A stretch of 64,000 nt of DNA from Porphyromonas macacae DSM 20710 = JCM 13914 (GTDB lineage: Bacteria > Bacteroidota > Bacteroidia > Bacteroidales > Porphyromonadaceae). The position numbers were made by a program, and so were the translations under genes. Every line of letters begins with the position of its first letter. Positions within the stretch are counted from its first letter, which is position 1. The stretch is taken from contig NZ_KB904147.1 in the NCBI RefSeq assembly GCF_000379945.1, positions 1-64,000 of the forward strand, given 5' to 3'. Below the pieces are notes generated by a model. It made no database searches, was not told the DNA's origin, and saw only the letters and a program-made list of their open reading frames with translations. Below, one piece after another: positions 226 through 58,140 of the stretch.

Positions 226-282
226 CCAACCACAAACCAAAACTAAAAGGAGCTGCGCCAAAATTCATTTTGACACAGCCCC
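1..282 (+). mobile_element. Right end of an IS1182-like insertion sequence (truncated by window start)
   Basis: This piece holds the C-terminal end of a transposase (to 225) and then a terminal sequence ending TTTTGACACAGCCCC at 268-282. The reverse complement, GGGGCTGTGTCAAAA, looks like an IS terminus. The terminus lies inside a short palindrome (about 249-282, GGAGCTGCGCCAAAA against TTTTGACACAGCCCC). The rest of the element lies outside the window, so its length and target duplication cannot be judged. The next gene starts only about 50 bp beyond the end. Confidence 0.75.
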
Positions 283-10170: not shown

Positions 10171-10283
10171 AAAAATCTTTTGCCTGATGGTTGAAAATTC
10201 TCTGCCTGACGGATTTTTATTCAAGTTAACTTCGTTGAAAATCCTTTGCGCTAAGAATTTTCAACCATCAGGCAGAGAATTTC
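10171..10283 (+). repeat. Dispersed palindromic element, copy 1
   Basis: Outer arms GCCTGATGGTTGAAAATTC (10182-10200) and GAATTTTCAACCATCAGGC (10255-10273) are perfect inverted repeats. Inside is CTGCCTGACGGATTTT, a central AAGTTAACTT and AAAATCC. The same sequence recurs at 24405-24516 in the same orientation and at 46089-46202 in the opposite one. It looks like a REP- or MITE-like element. No flanking target duplication is obvious. Confidence 0.85.
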
Positions 10284-21250: not shown

Positions 21251-22930
21251 TTATGCGACACAGTAAAGCAAAATGAGCAACTGGGCTGTAATCACCCTCA
21301 TAAACATAGTCAAAGGATAAACCGTGGCATATCCGATCATGGGTGCGCCGTTCTGAGACGTGACATTTGCATAGGCCAAAGCAGGAGGATCGGTAGTACT
21401 CCCGGCCAAAAGTCCCATCAACGTGTAATAGTTGATCTTCAAAATCTTAACAGCCACAATCCCCATAATCAATAAAGGAAGAACGGTAATGACCACGCCA
21501 TAACCGACCCAGACCCAACCGCCATTGTTAAGGGTTTCCACAAAAGTACCTCCGGCATTCAGCCCCACACATGCAAGGAAAAGCGTGATACCGATTTCCC
21601 GCAACATTTTATTGGCACTCTGGGTCGTATAAGTAACGATGTGGCAAGTATGCCCGAAACGCCCCATTATGATGGCCACAATGAGAGGACCGCCGGCCAA
21701 CCCTAATTTAACGGACTGCGGTACGCCCGGCACATCAAACGGAATGCTGCCTAAAAGAATACCCAAAGCTATACCGAAGAAAATACTGATCAAATTAGGT
21801 TCGTGAAGGTGTTTGACAGAGTCTCCGAGTATCTGTTTTATCTTCGGCATGGCAGCTTCACTGCCGACTACGGTAAGCTTATCGCCCAATTGCAGCGGCA
21901 TATTAGGTGTGGCCACCAAATCTATACCGGCTCTGTTTACACGGGTTATATTCACCCCTTCCAACTGACGAAGTTTCAGGTTACCGAGTTTTTTACCGTT
22001 CAACTCCTTATTAGTGATAACGAAACGGTTACTGATCAGCTTTGAGTCGGTCGGTATCCACATTTTCCGGTCCAGATCCATTTCTTCTCCCACAAAACTT
22101 TTCAGAAACTCATGATCCTGCTCCGTGGTGATAACAAAAATACGGTCTCCATCATGCAGTACGGTTTGGGAAGAAGCTACGGTAATTTTATTGGTTTGAA
22201 TATTCCAGTGACGAGAAATGACGAATGAATAATTCGAAAGATTCTTATTCATCTGCGCTATGCTCTGCCCGAAAAGAGAAGGGTTCTTGACAACCAGAGA
22301 CAATGCTATGGCAGACTGTGCAGAATCTTCATCCTCGTTTTCGAGTTTTCTCTGTTCTTCCTTTAGATTGATGCGAAGGATATAACGTAAAACGATCGTT
22401 GTCATAATGATACCGATAACTCCCAAAGGATAGGCCACGGCATACCCCATAGCAATACTGGGATTCATGGAGCCCATTACATCGGAATAAGCCTGCTGGG
22501 CTGCACCCAATCCGGGGGTATTTGTCACGGCGCCACTCAGTACGCCAACCATAGTTGCCATATCCACACCCGTAACATAATGCAGCGCAATGGTGGTAAA
22601 TACACCAAGAAATACAACCCCCAACGCCGTAAGATTAAGCTTAAGACCTCCTTTTTTCAATGAGGAGAAGAAACCGGGGCCGACTTGCAATCCTACAGAA
22701 TAAACAAAGAGTATCAACCCGAATTCCTGAAACAGATGTAATAATTCCGGGTTCATGGTCATCCCCAAATGACTGAATAGAATGCCGGCAAATAAAACAA
22801 ACGTAACGCCCAACGATATCCCGAAAATACGAATACGACCCATCAAAATACCAATGGATATCGTCATTGCCAATAAAAAAATAGAATGGGCTGTTCCCGT
22901 GCCCATAAAAAGATTTGTAAACCAATCCAT
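21251..22930 (-). CDS. AspT/YidE-YbjL-type transporter with paired RCK_C domains
   Basis: A 559-residue inner-membrane protein. Two blocks of about five membrane helices each (residues 1-190 and 380-559) look like a duplication of the AspT/YidE transporter half. They flank two cytoplasmic TrkA-C (RCK_C) domains near residues 210-370, with the conserved beginnings [16 protein letters not shown] and [16 protein letters not shown]. Known members exchange aspartate for alanine or move succinate; most are uncharacterised. The substrate here is unknown. It lies upstream of trmN6. Confidence 0.87.
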
Positions 22931-24140: not shown

Positions 24141-24404
24141 ATAACTAACCTCCGTTTATCGTTGGATAAACAAATTTATGCAAACAATCTCATCCATTCC
24201 CTATTATTCATCCGATATGTACCACAAATACCTACTGTTAATTAGAGAGATAAGACTGCATGGATAACCGTCCATACTTCCCGGATTTCAAAAGATTGAT
24301 TCCATGTCGATATCGTGGGCTTCATACCGGGAGTTTCCCCGTTCATCAAATAAATCTAATCCGGAAGAAGAAAGCAACTCTGACACAGCCTTTTAGAAGT
24401 AGGA

Positions 24405-24516
24405 GAAATTTTCTGCCTGATGGTTGAAAATTCTTTGCCTGACGGATTTTTAACCAAGTTAACTTGGATTTTTTTTCTTTGCCTGAAGAATTTTCAACCA
24501 TCAGGCAGAGAATTTT
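24405..24516 (+). repeat. Dispersed palindromic element, copy 2
   Basis: The arms GCCTGATGGTTGAAAATTC (24415-24433) and GAATTTTCAACCATCAGGC (24488-24506) are perfect inverted repeats. The inner part holds TTTGCCTGACGGATTTT, the central palindrome CCAAGTTAACTTGG and a further CTTTGCCTGA. It is close to the reverse complement of copy 3 along its whole length. Confidence 0.85.
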
Positions 24517-24688: not shown

Positions 24689-25891
24689 ATGGGAAGAGTC
24701 CTGATAATCGGTGCCGGAGGTGTTGGCACCGTGGTAGCCAAAAAAGTGGCGATGAATGCGGATGTTTTTACAGACATCATGCTGGCAAGCCGAACAAAAA
24801 GTAAATGCGACAAGCTGGCCAAAGAAATCGAAAAGCAGTTGGGAGTAAAAATAGCCACAGCAGCAGTGGATGCAGACAATGTACCGGAGTTGACCGAATT
24901 GATGAAAAGCTTCAAACCGGATCTCTGCATCAACGTGGCTCTGCCCTATCAGGACCTGCACATCATGGATGCCTGTTTGCTGGCAGGCGTGAACTATCTG
25001 GATACGGCAAACTACGAACCTCTGGATGAGGCTAAATACGAATACAGCTGGCAATGGGCTTATCAGGACAGATTTAAGGAAGCCGGCCTAACCGCAATTC
25101 TGGGTTGCGGTTTCGACCCGGGAGTAACCAGTGTCTTCACAGCACATGCAGCCAAACATCATTTCGACGAAATCCACTATCTGGATATTGTGGACTGCAA
25201 CGGCGGCGACCATCACAAGGCTTTTGCCACGAACTTCAATCCGGAAATCAATATCCGCGAAATTACTCAGAAAGGCAAATATTACGAAAATGGCCGATGG
25301 ATCGAAACCGAGCCTCAGGAAATCCATAAGGGACTGACCTACCCCAACATCGGAGAACGGGAAAGCTATCTGCTCTATCATGAAGAGTTGGAAAGCCTGG
25401 TTAAAAACTTCCCTACCATCAAACGCGCACGCTTCTGGATGACATTCGGCCAGGAATATCTGACCCATCTGCGCGTGATGCAAAATATCGGTATGACACG
25501 TATCGATCCGATCATGTACAACGGTATGGAGATCGTACCCATCCAATTCCTCAAAGCAGTATTGCCCGACCCGGGAGATTTGGGTGAAAATTACTCGGGA
25601 GAAACCAGCATCGGTTGCAGAATACGCGGCATCAAAAATGGCAAAGAACACACTTATTATATATGGAACAACTGTAGCCATGAAGCTGCATATAAAGAAA
25701 CAGGGGCACAGGGTGTAAGCTATACGACCGGCGTCCCCGCCACCATCGGGGCCATGATGTTTATGAAAGGGTTATGGCGTAGACCGGGCGTCTTTAATGT
25801 GGAAGAGTTCGACCCGGATCCGTTTATGGCCGAATTGCCCAAACAGGGATTGCCCTGGCATGAAGCCCACGATATCGACATAGAATTATAA
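24689..25891 (+). CDS. Carboxynorspermidine synthase (saccharopine dehydrogenase-like)
   Basis: A 400-residue NADPH-dependent enzyme. In the alternative polyamine route it condenses aspartate semialdehyde with a diamine to give carboxy(nor)spermidine, which NspC decarboxylates. The N-terminal VLIIGAGGVGTVVAKK is the dinucleotide loop. DTANYEPLDEAKYEY and LGCGFDPGVTSVF are blocks I associate with the carboxynorspermidine type rather than with lysine catabolism. nspC is not in the window. The gene is followed by parC after 30 bp. Confidence 0.87.
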   Translation: MGRVLIIGAGGVGTVVAKKVAMNADVFTDIMLASRTKSKCDKLAKEIEKQLGVKIATAAVDADNVPELTELMKSFKPDLCINVALPYQDLHIMDACLLAGVNYLDTANYEPLDEAKYEYSWQWAYQDRFKEAGLTAILGCGFDPGVTSVFTAHAAKHHFDEIHYLDIVDCNGGDHHKAFATNFNPEINIREITQKGKYYENGRWIETEPQEIHKGLTYPNIGERESYLLYHEELESLVKNFPTIKRARFWMTFGQEYLTHLRVMQNIGMTRIDPIMYNGMEIVPIQFLKAVLPDPGDLGENYSGETSIGCRIRGIKNGKEHTYYIWNNCSHEAAYKETGAQGVSYTTGVPATIGAMMFMKGLWRRPGVFNVEEFDPDPFMAELPKQGLPWHEAHDIDIEL

Positions 25892-39592: not shown

Positions 39593-41086
39593 TTATTTAT
39601 ACTCTTCCCATTTTACATTCCTCATATCACCGCTTTTCGCCATTTCCAGATGGAAAGCAAAGCATGCTTTGAGGTTTTGAGGTGTTTGTCCCTTAATACC
39701 CATATTCAGATAATCCGTCAGGAGTTCACGGTAATCCGGATGTACACAATTTTTGATAATTTCTTCGGCGCGTTCACGAGGGGTTTTGCCACGTAAGTCG
39801 GCAATGCCGTATTCGGTAATAATAACCTTTACAGAATGCTCCGAATGATCCATGTGTGAAACCAAAGGAACAAAAGCACTGATTTTCCCGTCCTTGGCTG
39901 TACTGGGTGTTGTGAAAATAGAGATATAACCGTTGCGGGTGAAATCGCCGGAACCACCGATACCGTTCATCATGCGCACACCGTTTACATGAGTAGAATT
40001 GATGTTTCCGAAAATATCGGCTTCCAAAGCCGTATTGATGGTGATAACCCCTAAACGACGTACAATTTCCGGGCTGTTGGAGTATTCTTGCGGACGAAGC
40101 AACAGCTTATCCTTAAAGAAATCGAGGTTGGAATATATATCGCGAATAACTTGGCGGCTTACACTTAACGAACAACCGCTGGCAAATTTAACACGACCCT
40201 TTTTCATCAAGGCAATAACAGCATCCTGAATAACTTCCGTATAAACATTGAATGCCGGAATTTCGGGATTGTCACCCAAAGCTCCCAATACGGCATTAGC
40301 CACATTGCCTACACCGCTTTGCAATGGTAGAAATTCGGCCGGAATACGGCCGGCTTTCAATTCGCCAACAAGGAATTTTGCTACATTGTCACCAATGGCT
40401 TTGGTAACATCGTCAAGCGGAGCAAAACCGCTATCGTCATTTGGCTCGCTGGTACGCACCACGCCTACAATTTTAGCAGGATCGACTTTCAAAACATCAC
40501 AACCGGCACGATCGCTCGGAGAGTATACAGGCAATTCTTTACGGTAAGGAGGGTCGGCCGGTTCGCACAAATCATGTATACCACGTATTTCTTTGGGATG
40601 CTTGTCATTCAACTCCACTATGATCTTATCGGCCAGACGACAGATGGTAGGTGTGATACCTACACCGCTCGTCGGCACTATTTCCCCTTCCTCTGTCACA
40701 TCGGCAGCCTCAATAATAGCCACATTGACCGGTCCCAGAAAACCGTAACGTATTTCCTGAGCTTCCATAGAAAGGTGCATGTCAAAATAGTTTACCTCGC
40801 TGTTATTAATGGCTGTTCGCATATCTTTGTTAGACTGATACGGAGTTCGAAACTTTACGGCATGGGCACGAGCTAATTCGCCATCCAAACGATCTCCGGT
40901 ACTTGCACCGGTAAACATCCCGATTTTAAACGGTTTTCCTTCTTTGTGAAAAGATTCTGCACGTCTGGCAATAGCCGCAGGAATCACTTTGGGGCATCCT
41001 GCCGGAGTAAATCCGCTAAACCCCACATTGTCATTGTGCTGAACATACTCAGCAGCTTCATCGGCTGTAATAAATTTCAGTGCCAT
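39593..41086 (-). CDS. Succinyl-CoA:acetate CoA-transferase (acetyl-CoA hydrolase/transferase family)
   Basis: A 497-residue enzyme that moves CoA between succinyl-CoA and acetate, feeding fermentation to acetate, propionate or butyrate. The catalytic glutamate is Glu284 in NVYTEVIQD. The GFSGFTPAG opening, the GSGGSGDF-like loop (read here as NGIGGSGDFTRNGYISIF) and the C-terminal ITEYGIADLRGKTPRERAE block fit class I CoA-transferases of the ACH1/SCACT type. It has its own promoter box and terminator. Confidence 0.9.
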   Translation of the reverse strand: MALKFITADEAAEYVQHNDNVGFSGFTPAGCPKVIPAAIARRAESFHKEGKPFKIGMFTGASTGDRLDGELARAHAVKFRTPYQSNKDMRTAINNSEVNYFDMHLSMEAQEIRYGFLGPVNVAIIEAADVTEEGEIVPTSGVGITPTICRLADKIIVELNDKHPKEIRGIHDLCEPADPPYRKELPVYSPSDRAGCDVLKVDPAKIVGVVRTSEPNDDSGFAPLDDVTKAIGDNVAKFLVGELKAGRIPAEFLPLQSGVGNVANAVLGALGDNPEIPAFNVYTEVIQDAVIALMKKGRVKFASGCSLSVSRQVIRDIYSNLDFFKDKLLLRPQEYSNSPEIVRRLGVITINTALEADIFGNINSTHVNGVRMMNGIGGSGDFTRNGYISIFTTPSTAKDGKISAFVPLVSHMDHSEHSVKVIITEYGIADLRGKTPRERAEEIIKNCVHPDYRELLTDYLNMGIKGQTPQNLKACFAFHLEMAKSGDMRNVKWEEYK

Positions 41087-46088: not shown

Positions 46089-46202
46089 TCAAAATTCTCT
46101 GCCTGATGGTTCAAAATCCATCAGGCAAAGAAAAAAAATCCAAGTTAACTTCGTTGAAAATCCGTCAGGCAAAGAATTTTCAAGCATCAGGCAGAGAATT
46201 TT
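46089..46202 (-). repeat. Dispersed palindromic element, copy 3 (opposite orientation)
   Basis: The outer arms are AAAATTCTCTGCCTGATGG and, at the other end, CATCAGGCAGAGAATTTT. Inside are two copies of CAGGCAAAG facing the opposite way from the TTTGCCTG in copies 1 and 2. The reverse complement of this stretch aligns with 24405-24516 nearly base for base. It lies 158 bp from the end of htpG. Confidence 0.85.
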
Positions 46203-48775: not shown

Positions 48776-48810
48776 GGGGTTGCGTCAAAAATGAATTTTG
48801 ACACAGCCCC
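48776..48810 (+). mobile_element. Solitary IS-end-like palindrome upstream of the cas operon
   Basis: GGGGTTGCGTCAAAA (48776-48790) faces TTTTGACACAGCCCC (48796-48810). The second arm is identical over 15 bases to the terminus at 268-282 of the IS at the window start, which also has an opposing arm of GGAGCTGCGCCAAAA. No transposase sequence is attached, so it looks like a remnant or a non-autonomous relic. Confidence 0.65.
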
Positions 48811-56915: not shown

Positions 56916-57089
56916 TCGCTCTGCGAACCTCAAGTACACAGTAAAAGCACACCCCTTTCGCATCTCTTCATTACCAGTAGATTAGATCGAATTTGTCAAA
57001 ATTATAGAAGTGCGTTCTTTGAAATATTTAGATATTCGCATTTTACCTCTCTATATGTCCTATAAATAATATATATTTACATACTTACA
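56916..57089 (+). promoter_or_regulatory. CRISPR leader
   Basis: An AT-rich, non-coding 174 bp between the cas2 stop and the first repeat. It would hold the array promoter and the integration signals. No exact TAnnTTTG box was found; the stretch TTTGAAATATTTAGATA near 57018 is a weak candidate. Its place beside intact repeats, with decayed repeats at the far end, supports the leader call. Confidence 0.7.
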
Positions 57090-58140
57090 GTCGCAACCCG
57101 TCCGGGTTGCGTGAATTGAAATACTTAAGGACACGGGCGTTACAGCTATGTTACGCGCGTCGCAACCCGTCCGGGTTGCGTGAATTGAAATAAAAATCTA
57201 TCTAAAATCGAAATAGCCTCAGAAACGTCGCAACCCGTCCGGGTTGCGTGAATTGAAATCTTCCAAACTCTTCCACGACTTTGTTTGTATCAGGTCGCAA
57301 CCCGTCCGGGTTGCGTGAATTGAAATGATTACTTTGCCCCAGGGGCATACATGGGAGAGTTATGTCGCAACCCGTCCGGGTTGCGTGAATTGAAATTTAC
57401 CCATCCTCTGTGCCGGGCACTACGAAAACAGTCGCAACCCGTCCGGGTTGCGTGAATTGAAATCCTGATGGCGGGGGGTTGTTGCTGCCAGCGATGAACG
57501 TCGCAACCCGTCCGGGTTGCGTGAATTGAAATAGGTCAATGATGCCGGCACGCAATTTCGCTGGCTGGTCGCAACCCGTCCGGGTTGCGTGAATTGAAAT
57601 ATCTTACGTTTGTGCTCGATGACCGTGATGTGCTGTCGCAACCCGTCCGGGTTGCGTGAATTGAAATACTTATTCCATCCGTACTTAGATACCCGGCTAT
57701 GGTCGCAACCCGTCCGGGTTGCGTGAATTGAAATATGTGAAATCTTTGTGCCAGAAGAGGCTTCTGGTGTGTCGCAACCCGTCCGGGTTGCGTGAATTGA
57801 AATGATGGTGTCGACTTCGGCGCTGGCCAGTATCGCGTCGCAACCCGTCCGGGTTGCGTGAATTGAAATAAAATCGCAAAACAAATCGATATCGTCTATA
57901 TTAAGTCGCAACCCGTCCGGGTTGCGTGAATTGAAATGCCATTATTCCGTGTCTTTATATAAGTCGAGGATACGTCGCAACCCGTCCGGGTTGCGTGAAT
58001 TGAAATTTGAGTTACACCTCCGCAAACCAGTTTGTCCATTGTCGCAACCCGTCCGGGTTGCGTGAATTCAATTACTTCACTGCCTACGATGGAAACGCCA
58101 TAACGTTGTCGCAACCCGTCCGGGTTGCGTGAATTCAATT
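57090..58140 (+). CRISPR. Type I-C CRISPR array, 16 repeats and 15 spacers
   Basis: The 33-bp repeat starts GTCGCAACCCGTCCGGGTTG and ends CGTGAATTGAAAT. It contains the 7-bp inverted pair CAACCCG/CGGGTTG (6-bp core with a TC loop) and the GAATTGAAAT end usual for I-C. Repeats start at 57090, 57159, 57227, 57294, 57364, 57431, 57500, 57568, 57635, 57702, 57771, 57837, 57905, 57974, 58041 and 58108. Spacers are 33 to 37 bp and all differ. The first 14 repeats are identical; the last two end GAATTCAATT instead. That marks the right side as the old, leader-distal end. The array is on the same strand as the cas genes. Confidence 0.98.

What the first reader, a model, noticed from the sequence alone, without database searches (positions are those of the whole stretch)
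24405..24516. Family of about 110-bp palindromic elements, three copies in intergenic DNA
Copies at 10171-10283, 24405-24516 and 46089-46202 share arms of about 29 bp around GCCTGATGGTTGAAAATTC and a central AAGTTAACTT. Inner TTTGCCTGA motifs recur inside each copy. All three lie in gaps between genes. Such elements resemble REP/MITE families, but the internal repetition of the same motif in arms and core is unusual. They could be moved by an IS or a RAYT-type transposase elsewhere, or act as RNA hairpins.
Basis: seen in the sequence. Interest (0 to 1): 0.6.

Follow-up and report, generated by a model that had tools for sequence, protein, structure and literature searches.

The report
Species-specific 22-bp-phased palindrome repeats
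A 112-bp palindromic DNA repeat occurs at least 85 times in the genome of one Porphyromonas species, and other members of the genus carry different-looking repeats built on the same roughly 22-bp (two-turn) spacing, so the spacing seems to be kept while the sequence changes from species to species.

Summary
The three copies belong to a sharply bounded 112-bp inverted-repeat family with at least 85 copies in the own genome. No full-length match was found in 25 same-genus, 11 same-family or 294 sampled order-level genomes (overlapping sets, few candidates scored per genome). No RAYT gene, no target duplications and no partner element were found. The 'internal repetition' is a strict 22-bp register: arms start 22, 44 or 66 bp from the core (66 of 66 left arms found; 71 of 72 right arms end at such multiples). 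Other Porphyromonas genomes carry sequence-unrelated intergenic arrays of near-palindromic words with variable spacers at a 22-23-bp period (45 of 56 periodic intergenic loci; 4 of 79 inside ORFs); words differ by species (one word: 138 sites in one genome, 0-2 in 25 others). P. gingivalis BrickBuilt (23 nt) fits this class. Best reading: helically phased dyad arrays, probably binding sites for dimeric DNA-binding proteins, here closed into a hairpin; a decayed IS3-like element lies beside many (38 of 44 IS-end words). Function and cognate protein are inferred, not shown. A MITE of a lost transposase, or a mutational satellite, remain live rivals.

The parts
24405..24516 (+). Reference copy of the 112-bp inverted-repeat element
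   Evidence: family boundary (arm complementarity 57% at position 51 from the core, 21% at 52)
24405..24435 (+). Left arm, about 31 bp
24422..24433 (+). AT-box 1 GGTTGAAAATTC
   Evidence: register
24434..24443 (+). Inner brick TTTGCCTGAC, the most variable segment between copies (also GTAGCGCTAC, TTAGCGCAAT, TTAGCGCTAC, TTCAGGCAAA)
   Evidence: mean entropy 0.87
24444..24455 (+). AT-box 2 GGATTTTTAACC (commonest form in the family GGATTTTCAACG)
24456..24465 (.). Central palindrome AAGTTAACTT
24466..24477 (+). AT-box 3 GGATTTTTTTTC
24478..24487 (+). Inner brick TTTGCCTGAA (TCCTTAACAA in subtype B copies)
24488..24499 (+). AT-box 4 GAATTTTCAACC
24486..24516 (+). Right arm, about 31 bp
10172..10283 (+). 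Second copy, with a variant right half, between a GH20 hexosaminidase gene and uvrA (tandem)
46091..46202 (-). Third copy, in opposite orientation, 94% identical to the reference, between htpG (its 3' side) and an ion-channel gene (its 5' side), both on the - strand
   Evidence: one search missed the ion-channel gene

Best explanation
The element is one species' version of a genus-wide class of intergenic DNA arrays in which short dyad-symmetric words repeat every ~22 bp (two helical turns). SHOWN: in this species four AT-boxes and the bricks between them, on a 22-bp register, are closed into a 112-bp inverted repeat present in at least 85 copies; other Porphyromonas genomes carry arrays with the same period, often with dyad words, conserved words and variable spacers, but different words. 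INFERRED: each word is the operator of a homodimeric DNA-binding protein, and the two-turn spacing puts successive dimers on one face of the helix so that they bind side by side and shape local nucleoid structure or promoter access. INFERRED: arrays grow and shrink by whole 22-bp bricks through slippage or template switching and spread by occasional copying, not by RAYT; the IS3-like element used them as preferred landing places.
For: 22-bp quantisation over 84 copies: left-arm starts 50 at 44, 12 at 22, 4 at 66, 18 with no arm found; right-arm ends 68 at 44, 2 at 22, 1 at 66, 1 at 43, 12 none. Periodicity: in nine samples (seven relatives, the own genome, and six loci of Porphyromonas or Porphyromonadaceae pooled) 45 of 56 intergenic periodic loci have best lag 22 or 23, against 4 of 79 in ORFs, where 69 of 79 lags are multiples of 3; other Bacteroidota: 11 of 58 intergenic. 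Fresh gene-anchored sample: of 7 intergenic periodic loci in 32 loci, one (L237) proved to overlap COT-239 sequence already used; the other six have lags 22 (4), 23 (1), 24 (1), and three of them come from genomes not sampled before (G014, G016, G021). Dyad symmetry: 25 of 46 arrays at p<=0.05 against column shuffles; 6 of 20 in other Bacteroidota. Words conserved, spacers less: unit-to-unit identity 0.69-0.84 up to 6 bp from the axis, 0.41 at 9-10 bp (the 25 arrays with dyad p<=0.05). Species-specific word: 138 sites in G003, 0-2 in each of 25 other genomes. No G.U preference (24 vs 23).
Against: No cognate protein was found or sought, and no binding data exist. In the window's own family the outer spacers are as conserved as the boxes (entropy 0.20-0.21 vs 0.27-0.43), so 'conserved word, variable spacer' holds only for the inner left brick (0.87) and weakly for the right one (0.48). 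Direct-lag detection sees few G000 loci (4 arrays in 400 kb, 1 with a dyad signal), since the words are inverted. G004 (80 kb) gives no intergenic locus. 21 of 46 arrays lack a significant dyad. Several words coexist in one genome (G025), which one regulator would not explain. In the fresh sample 2 of 5 loci inside open frames also have lag 22. In other Bacteroidota lags of 21-23 are also common (20 of 58 intergenic, 21 of 75 in ORFs). Divergent-gap enrichment of the window family depends on the gene caller: 28 of 77, p=0.0002 against gaps of 100 bp or more and 0.024 against 200 or more; 25 of 66, p=0.014 and 0.053 with a second caller. In other genomes it is not significant (15 of 35 vs 48 of 171, p=0.11).
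Confidence: 0.43

Rival explanations
1. A MITE family mobilised by a transposase now lost or unrecognised: sharply bounded 112 bp with 31-bp terminal inverted repeats, amplified recently in one species.
For: Boundary at position 51-52 and ~31-bp terminal repeats; at least 85 copies in one species and no full-length match in relatives; 86-98% identity of the other 39 scored copies to the reference.
Against: No target duplications: matches of 3 or more bp at the ends in 5 of 36 copies vs 4.9 with re-paired flanks, 2 of 19 vs 2.4 for copies with the IS3-like end; shared words of 5 or more bp in 7 of 36 vs 4.3 (108 of 1000 shuffles reach it). No DDE_Tnp_1 locus carries the arms as ends; other transposase families were not searched. 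Size changes in 22-bp steps.
Confidence: 0.25
2. Purely mutational satellites: hairpin-prone DNA that expands by template switching in steps set by the replication machinery, with no function and with dyads kept by intra-hairpin correction.
For: Whole-brick length changes; some spacers are duplicated with the word (seen in a G003 array); at positions 22-44 the two arms match within a copy slightly better than when re-paired (861 vs 846 +/- 5; 15 of 2000 shuffles reach it).
Against: Duplication alone would copy spacers as well as words, yet spacers are less alike; 85 or more dispersed copies need more than local slippage; over positions 1-44 the arm test shows nothing (1866 of 2000).
Confidence: 0.17
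3. RNA-level element: a long hairpin in transcripts acting as terminator, stabiliser or regulator (BOX-like).
For: Very stable predicted hairpins on both strands of the three window copies; T-runs after the right arm in many copies.
Against: No G.U over A.C preference on the presumed RNA strand (24 vs 23, 16 copies); convergent gaps not enriched (14 of 77, p=0.24; 10 of 66, p=0.75); no Rfam match in the window, and in six sampled loci only tRNAs and riboswitches.
Confidence: 0.1
4. IS3-derived MITE: the palindrome rides between ends of the decayed IS3-like element (TGACGTGTACTGAAAAAAGTTGACA...).
For: 38 of 44 exact IS-end words lie within 130 bp of a copy against 0.44 expected; 25 of 84 copies have the IS end as right boundary, 19 of them at offset 52 and 3 at 51.
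Against: Only 2 of 84 copies have the end on both sides within 100 bp of the core, and 40 have none. The same IS end sits beside unrelated arrays in G025 and COT-239, so the IS seems to follow arrays rather than make them.
Confidence: 0.05

Closest known systems
BrickBuilt MITE / 23-nt minisatellite of P. gingivalis (PMC4596501; abstract, sections 5, 8, 12 and part 1 of section 7 read)
   Same: Intergenic, species-limited, built from a 23-nt brick with a conserved and a less conserved half, long stem-loops predicted. The 23-bp array at G025:40294 lies beside a gene with a thioredoxin motif, as listed for BrickBuilt_1; G009 has what looks like the same brick in nine units.
   Different: Different sequence; BrickBuilt has leader and tail segments with IS5-like ends and up to 22.8 direct repeats, while the window element is a closed inverted repeat, mostly of one size.
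BOX / RUP / SPRITE repeats of S. pneumoniae (PMC3049150, abstract read)
   Same: Interspersed repeats with extensive secondary structure, nearly confined to close relatives, judged parasitic by the authors.
   Different: No 22-bp register in what I read; the modular make-up of BOX is recalled.
REP / BIME with RAYT (PMC3733652, passages; PMC2817692, search listing only)
   Same: Short palindromes, many copies, mostly extragenic, in BIMEs regularly spaced in alternating orientation.
   Different: No RAYT here; GTAG/CGTC tags were not looked for; the word is species-specific and phased at 22 bp.
IS targeting of REP sequences (PMC1525189, abstract read)
   Same: IS elements concentrated at palindromic repeats.
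   Different: Here the IS3-like element lies beside the palindrome at several offsets and was seen only as fragments.
TIGR arrays (PMC12045711, passages read)
   Same: Short repeats with short variable spacers; the paper also describes stem-loop arrays with palindromic sequences and 8-12-nt spacers.
   Different: Dual-repeat TIGR alternates two repeats with 9-nt spacers beside a tas gene; ours has one dyad word per ~22 bp and many dispersed loci. The stem-loop variant was not tested against our arrays.

Membership tests
REP/REPIN with RAYT | Y1 tyrosine transposase (RAYT) in the genome | tested here: not met
   PF01797: 0 matches at E<=0.001 in the own genome (3 candidates scored); 5 of 14 control genomes ring
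REP/REPIN with RAYT | Many intergenic palindromic copies | tested here: met
   a cruder caller puts 12 of 83 in some open frame
MITE (DDE transposase) | Terminal inverted repeats with sharp ends | tested here: met
   42 standard-length copies
MITE (DDE transposase) | Target-site duplication | tested here: not met
   no clear excess over re-paired flanks in 36 + 19 copies
MITE (DDE transposase) | Full-length partner element with the same ends | tested here: inconclusive
   none of 5 DDE_Tnp_1 loci has the arms as ends; other transposase families not searched
BrickBuilt | 22-23-bp brick register | tested here: met
BrickBuilt | Leader/tail segments with GAGACC-type ends | tested here: not met
   copies end in AAAATTC...GAATTTT
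Porphyromonas 22-bp dyad arrays (class proposed here) | Period of 22-24 bp | tested here: met
   window family by arm offsets; class
Porphyromonas 22-bp dyad arrays (class proposed here) | Word conserved, spacer variable within the window family | tested here: inconclusive
   inner bricks vary, outer spacers are conserved
TIGR array | Two alternating repeats, 9-nt spacers | tested here: not met
   single ~22-bp period; TIGR layout from passages
TIGR array | Adjacent tas (Nop-domain) gene | not tested
Intrinsic terminator | Preference for convergent gaps | tested here: not met
   14 of 77, p=0.24; 10 of 66, p=0.75 with a second caller
Known RNA family | Rfam match at gathering score | tested here: not met
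   window: 0 matches

The most novel reading that the evidence does not exclude
Porphyromonas genomes, and perhaps other Bacteroidales, carry an undescribed layer of chromosome organisation: tens to hundreds of intergenic operator arrays with a near-invariant two-helical-turn pitch whose recognition word is replaced from species to species, implying rapidly co-evolving DNA-binding proteins that bind side by side along one face of the DNA. The window element is the hairpin-closed version of such an array.
Probability: 0.32. Interest if true: 0.82.

Novelty: new variant of a known kind. Interest (0 to 1): 0.6.

Why it matters
Intergenic repeats in bacteria are usually filed one species at a time by sequence similarity, which hides any feature that survives sequence turnover. 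Here the conserved trait is a spacing, visible only when unrelated repeats are compared. If it reflects phased protein binding, it points to an unknown DNA-binding system with fast-changing specificity; if it reflects a mutational process, it gives that process a characteristic length. It also offers a common frame for BrickBuilt and for the 22- and 23-nt repeats that PMC4596501 mentions for P. gingivalis W83.

Tried and rejected
RAYT mobilisation: no Y1_Tnp. DDE partner: no arms as ends at five DDE_Tnp_1 loci; one (L225) has a copy 0.9 kb away. Target duplications: none. Rfam: nothing in the window, only tRNAs and riboswitches in six sampled loci. Phages and plasmids: no match. Viral contigs: no exact match to a 23-base core pattern. 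Named genome collection: no exact match to a 31-base pattern, with the tool's note that near records may be left out. Orthologous gaps: among 84 copies against seven relatives' samples of 40-200 kb, no copy had both flanking genes adjacent (its one line, L152, was overlapping weak hits); the listed hits show no syntenic pair around 24405 or 10172. So empty sites could not be tested. TIGR: dual-repeat layout differs. Literature: nine searches listed nothing whose title or abstract start describes 22-bp-phased dyad arrays across Porphyromonas; papers not held, and the bodies of papers not opened, are not covered.

One of the seven 'fresh' arrays (L237) duplicates COT-239 sequence already sampled. 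One search miscalled the neighbours of the copy at 46091. The divergent-gap signal is weaker with a second caller. For these reasons I lowered the best explanation from 0.45 to 0.43 and the novel case from 0.33 to 0.32. Three positions typed into (on C14, C27, C29) are approximate; the C29 one is a copy without the core (L222). The window length, threshold and lag range are my own choice, with a stricter threshold, shows the same peaks.

Full report
OBSERVATION. The three palindromes are real and in place. The repeat finder groups them as one family (D3) with long inverted arms. In the own genome (G000, 2,214,526 bases, 31 contigs) BLAST with the copy at 24405 scored 40 of 100 first-look candidates, all 40 of them copies. 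The core AAGTTAACTT occurs 89 times against 4 for the reversed control. I fetched 87 sites (84 from the window), dropped L154, L155, L169 and L180 as chance cores, and added L217: 84 copies. C27:36577 is a further copy; two single-arm remnants without core lie in 400 kb of C1, and one core-less copy is at C29:1-330.

RESTRICTION TO ONE SPECIES. No match in 25 same-genus and 11 same-family genomes; 2 of 24 further order-level genomes have 23-24-bp matches only (up to 14 candidates scored per genome). In 295 order-level genomes including the own, and overlapping those, four others have matches, of 23-28 bp only (only 3 candidates scored per genome, so a single weak copy could be missed). The closest relative by one gene, G005 (82% DNA identity over that gene; 87% complete), has no match. 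The genus is Porphyromonas by named relatives (COT-239, COT-290 and others); no tool names the species.

ANATOMY. In 42 standard-length copies the two halves pair at 55-100% of copies from position 21 to 51 from the core, 57% at 51 and 21% at 52, giving 112 bp with ~31-bp arms; most of positions 1-20 do not pair. The outline is box-brick-box on a 22-bp register: GGTTGAAAATTC, GGATTTTCAACG, GGATTTTTTTTC and GAATTTTCAACC, with bricks such as TTTGCCTGAC, GTAGCGCTAC, AAGTTAACTT and TTTGCCTGAA between them. The inner left brick is the most variable segment (entropy 0.87), the inner right brick 0.48, the boxes 0.27-0.43, and the outer bricks 0.20-0.21, which does not fit a simple 'word constant, spacer free' picture. 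Over all 84 copies the left arm starts 44 (50 copies), 22 (12) or 66 (4) bp before the core, 18 with none found; the right arm ends at 44 (68), 22 (2), 66 (1) or 43 (1), 12 none. Predicted hairpins of the three window copies are strong as RNA and DNA.

LOCATION. With the codon-scored caller none of 83 sites lies inside a gene; with a cruder caller (any open frame of 100 aa) 12 of 83 do. Of 77 with both neighbours called, 28 are divergent, 35 tandem and 14 convergent. Gaps of at least 100 bp in 464 kb are 110 tandem, 30 divergent, 22 convergent; divergent gaps are enriched at p=0.0002, or 0.024 against gaps of 200 bp or more, and convergent gaps are not enriched (p=0.24). With the cruder caller: 25 of 66 divergent, p=0.014 and 0.053; 10 convergent, p=0.75. 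The first caller missed the ion-channel gene beside the copy at 46091, so its errors are real.

MOBILITY. No RAYT-type transposase. Five DDE_Tnp_1 matches, two with a stop inside and one short piece, none with the arms as ends. No target duplications: 5 of 36 vs 4.9 and 2 of 19 vs 2.4; shared words of 5 bp or more 7 of 36 vs 4.3, 108 of 1000 shuffles. At positions 22-44 arms of one copy match each other slightly better than re-paired arms (15 of 2000 shuffles reach the value); at 33-44, 130 of 2000; at 1-44, 1866 of 2000.

THE IS3-LIKE NEIGHBOUR. The word TTCAGTACACGTCA occurs 44 times; 38 lie within 130 bp of a copy, 0.44 expected. It is the end of a decayed element running from TGACGTGTACTGAAAAAAGTTGACACTCG to CGAGTGTCAACTTTTTTCAGTACACGTCA (579 bp at C14) with an OrfA-like frame. 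Searched with that piece, the own genome gave 37 matching pieces (40 of 60 candidates scored), the next longest 321 bp; no intact copy is evident in the list. Pfam found no family in the frame, so 'IS3-like' rests on the TG...CA ends and the look of the frame, recalled features. Within 100 bp of the core (12-base end, up to 2 mismatches) 43 of 84 copies have such an end: 25 with the end as right boundary, 13 pointing outward on the right, 7 on the left, 2 of these in the first class as well; one more (L213) has an outward end on the left. The same end lies beside unrelated arrays in G025 (2 of 3 occurrences within 110 bp) and in COT-239 (1 of 1); the eight other samples and loci looked at had none, G001 and G011 among them. 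This recalls IS elements that target REP sequences (PMC1525189, abstract).

THE GENUS-WIDE PATTERN. Self-comparison of samples from other Porphyromonas genomes showed dispersed repeats of the same look and unrelated sequence: GACCAGTACTGGTC and GACCTATATAGGTC with 8-bp spacers in G003; TGAGGGATATCCSTCA with 6-bp spacers in G011; GACCTATCCTATACGG in G022; GGCGCG words in G025; ATTGATGGAC words in G001. G025 has 2,354,886 bases, which I recall as P. gingivalis ATCC 33277; its 23-bp array at 40294 sits next to a gene with a thioredoxin motif, as BrickBuilt_1 does in Table 1 of PMC4596501. I scanned lags 12-40 in 66-bp windows at 55% identity. In nine samples 45 of 56 intergenic periodic loci had best lag 22 or 23 (41 of 48 without the own genome), against 4 of 79 inside open frames of 120 aa or more, where 69 of 79 lags are multiples of 3. 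Two of the six pooled loci are named only Porphyromonadaceae; all their arrays come from records named Porphyromonas. Other Bacteroidota, 1.23 Mb: 11 of 58 intergenic at 22-23 and 9 more at 21; in frames 10 of 75 at 22-23 and 11 at 21, so the control is not flat. G004 gave no intergenic locus. A second sample, 32 loci held only because they encode relatives of two window genes, gave 7 intergenic loci (22 four times, 23 twice, 24 once) and 5 in frames, 2 of them at 22. Two loci of that sample (L234, L237) overlap sequence used before, and one of the 23s (L237) is such a duplicate; the other six stand, three from genomes not sampled before (G014, G016, G021). In a column-shuffle test 25 of 46 arrays have dyad symmetry at p<=0.05 (6 of 20 in other Bacteroidota). 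In these 25, identity between units is 0.69-0.84 up to 6 bp from the axis, 0.53-0.58 at 7-8 and 0.41 at 9-10 bp; the axis was chosen by symmetry, not by conservation, but the arrays were chosen for overall identity at the lag. Genome-wide, GACCNRTAYNGGTC occurs 138 times in G003 and 0-2 times in each of 25 other genomes; the reversed control gives 0-2.

HOW IT MOST LIKELY WORKS. A fixed pitch of two turns, dyad words and freer spacers are what one expects of side-by-side dimers on one face of DNA. RNA function is less likely: no G.U excess on the presumed transcript strand (24 G.T vs 23 A.C in 16 tandem-context copies) and 25-28 copies upstream of both neighbours. That a protein binds is inference; several words in one genome (G025) would need several proteins. 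A mutational origin is the main non-functional rival, and a lost transposase the main mobile-element rival for the window family, because its sharp 112-bp form and high copy identity look like recent amplification.

KNOWN AND NEW. BrickBuilt (PMC4596501; abstract, sections 5, 8, 12 and part 1 of section 7 read) is the nearest named element: a 23-nt brick whose latter half holds most non-conserved sites, intergenic, in P. gingivalis and P. gulae, with promoter activity of its leader and tail measured in E. coli. The paper also mentions 22-, 23- and 41-nt repeats in strain W83. What nine searches did not list is the window's family or the shared 22-24-bp dyad design across the genus.

Noticed in passing
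window 57064-58140: CRISPR array: 16 repeats listed (GTCGCAACCCGTCCGGGTTGCGTGAATTGAAAT) at 66-70-bp steps.
   Followed up: no
window 24299-24331: Inverted 91%-identical fragment of the 3' end of the gene at 24689-25891, just upstream of the element; looks like a rearrangement scar.
   Followed up: no
window 249-282 and 48788-48810: Another palindromic repeat, GGGGCTGTGTCAAAATTCATTTTGACACAGCCCC type, also in flanks of some copies and in C1.
   Followed up: partly
L217:778-1356 and fragments across the own genome: Decayed IS3-like element, 37 matching pieces listed; two diverged pieces at C13:20449-20871.
   Followed up: partly
L122:7087, L117:2713, L096:840, L091:2306, L131:2353: 22-bp repeats of palindromic or near-palindromic words in other Bacteroidales, e.g. 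GAACATATGTTC with 10-bp spacers and AAACAATATAGTTT with 8-bp spacers.
   Followed up: partly
G001 sample (L280-L289), 13 loci: Words ATTGATGGAC / GTCCACCAAT seem to change together in some copies while the 7-8-bp spacers differ freely; read by eye only.
   Followed up: no
G003 sample (L316-L319) near 430, 6330, 32170, 52410: A ~250-350-bp repeat beside which GACCTATATAGGTC-type words lie.
   Followed up: no
G004 sample (L301, L303) near 21840, 25590, 60960: A ~120-bp repeat with GTGTCATAAAG-like ends, apparently a separate MITE-like family.
   Followed up: no
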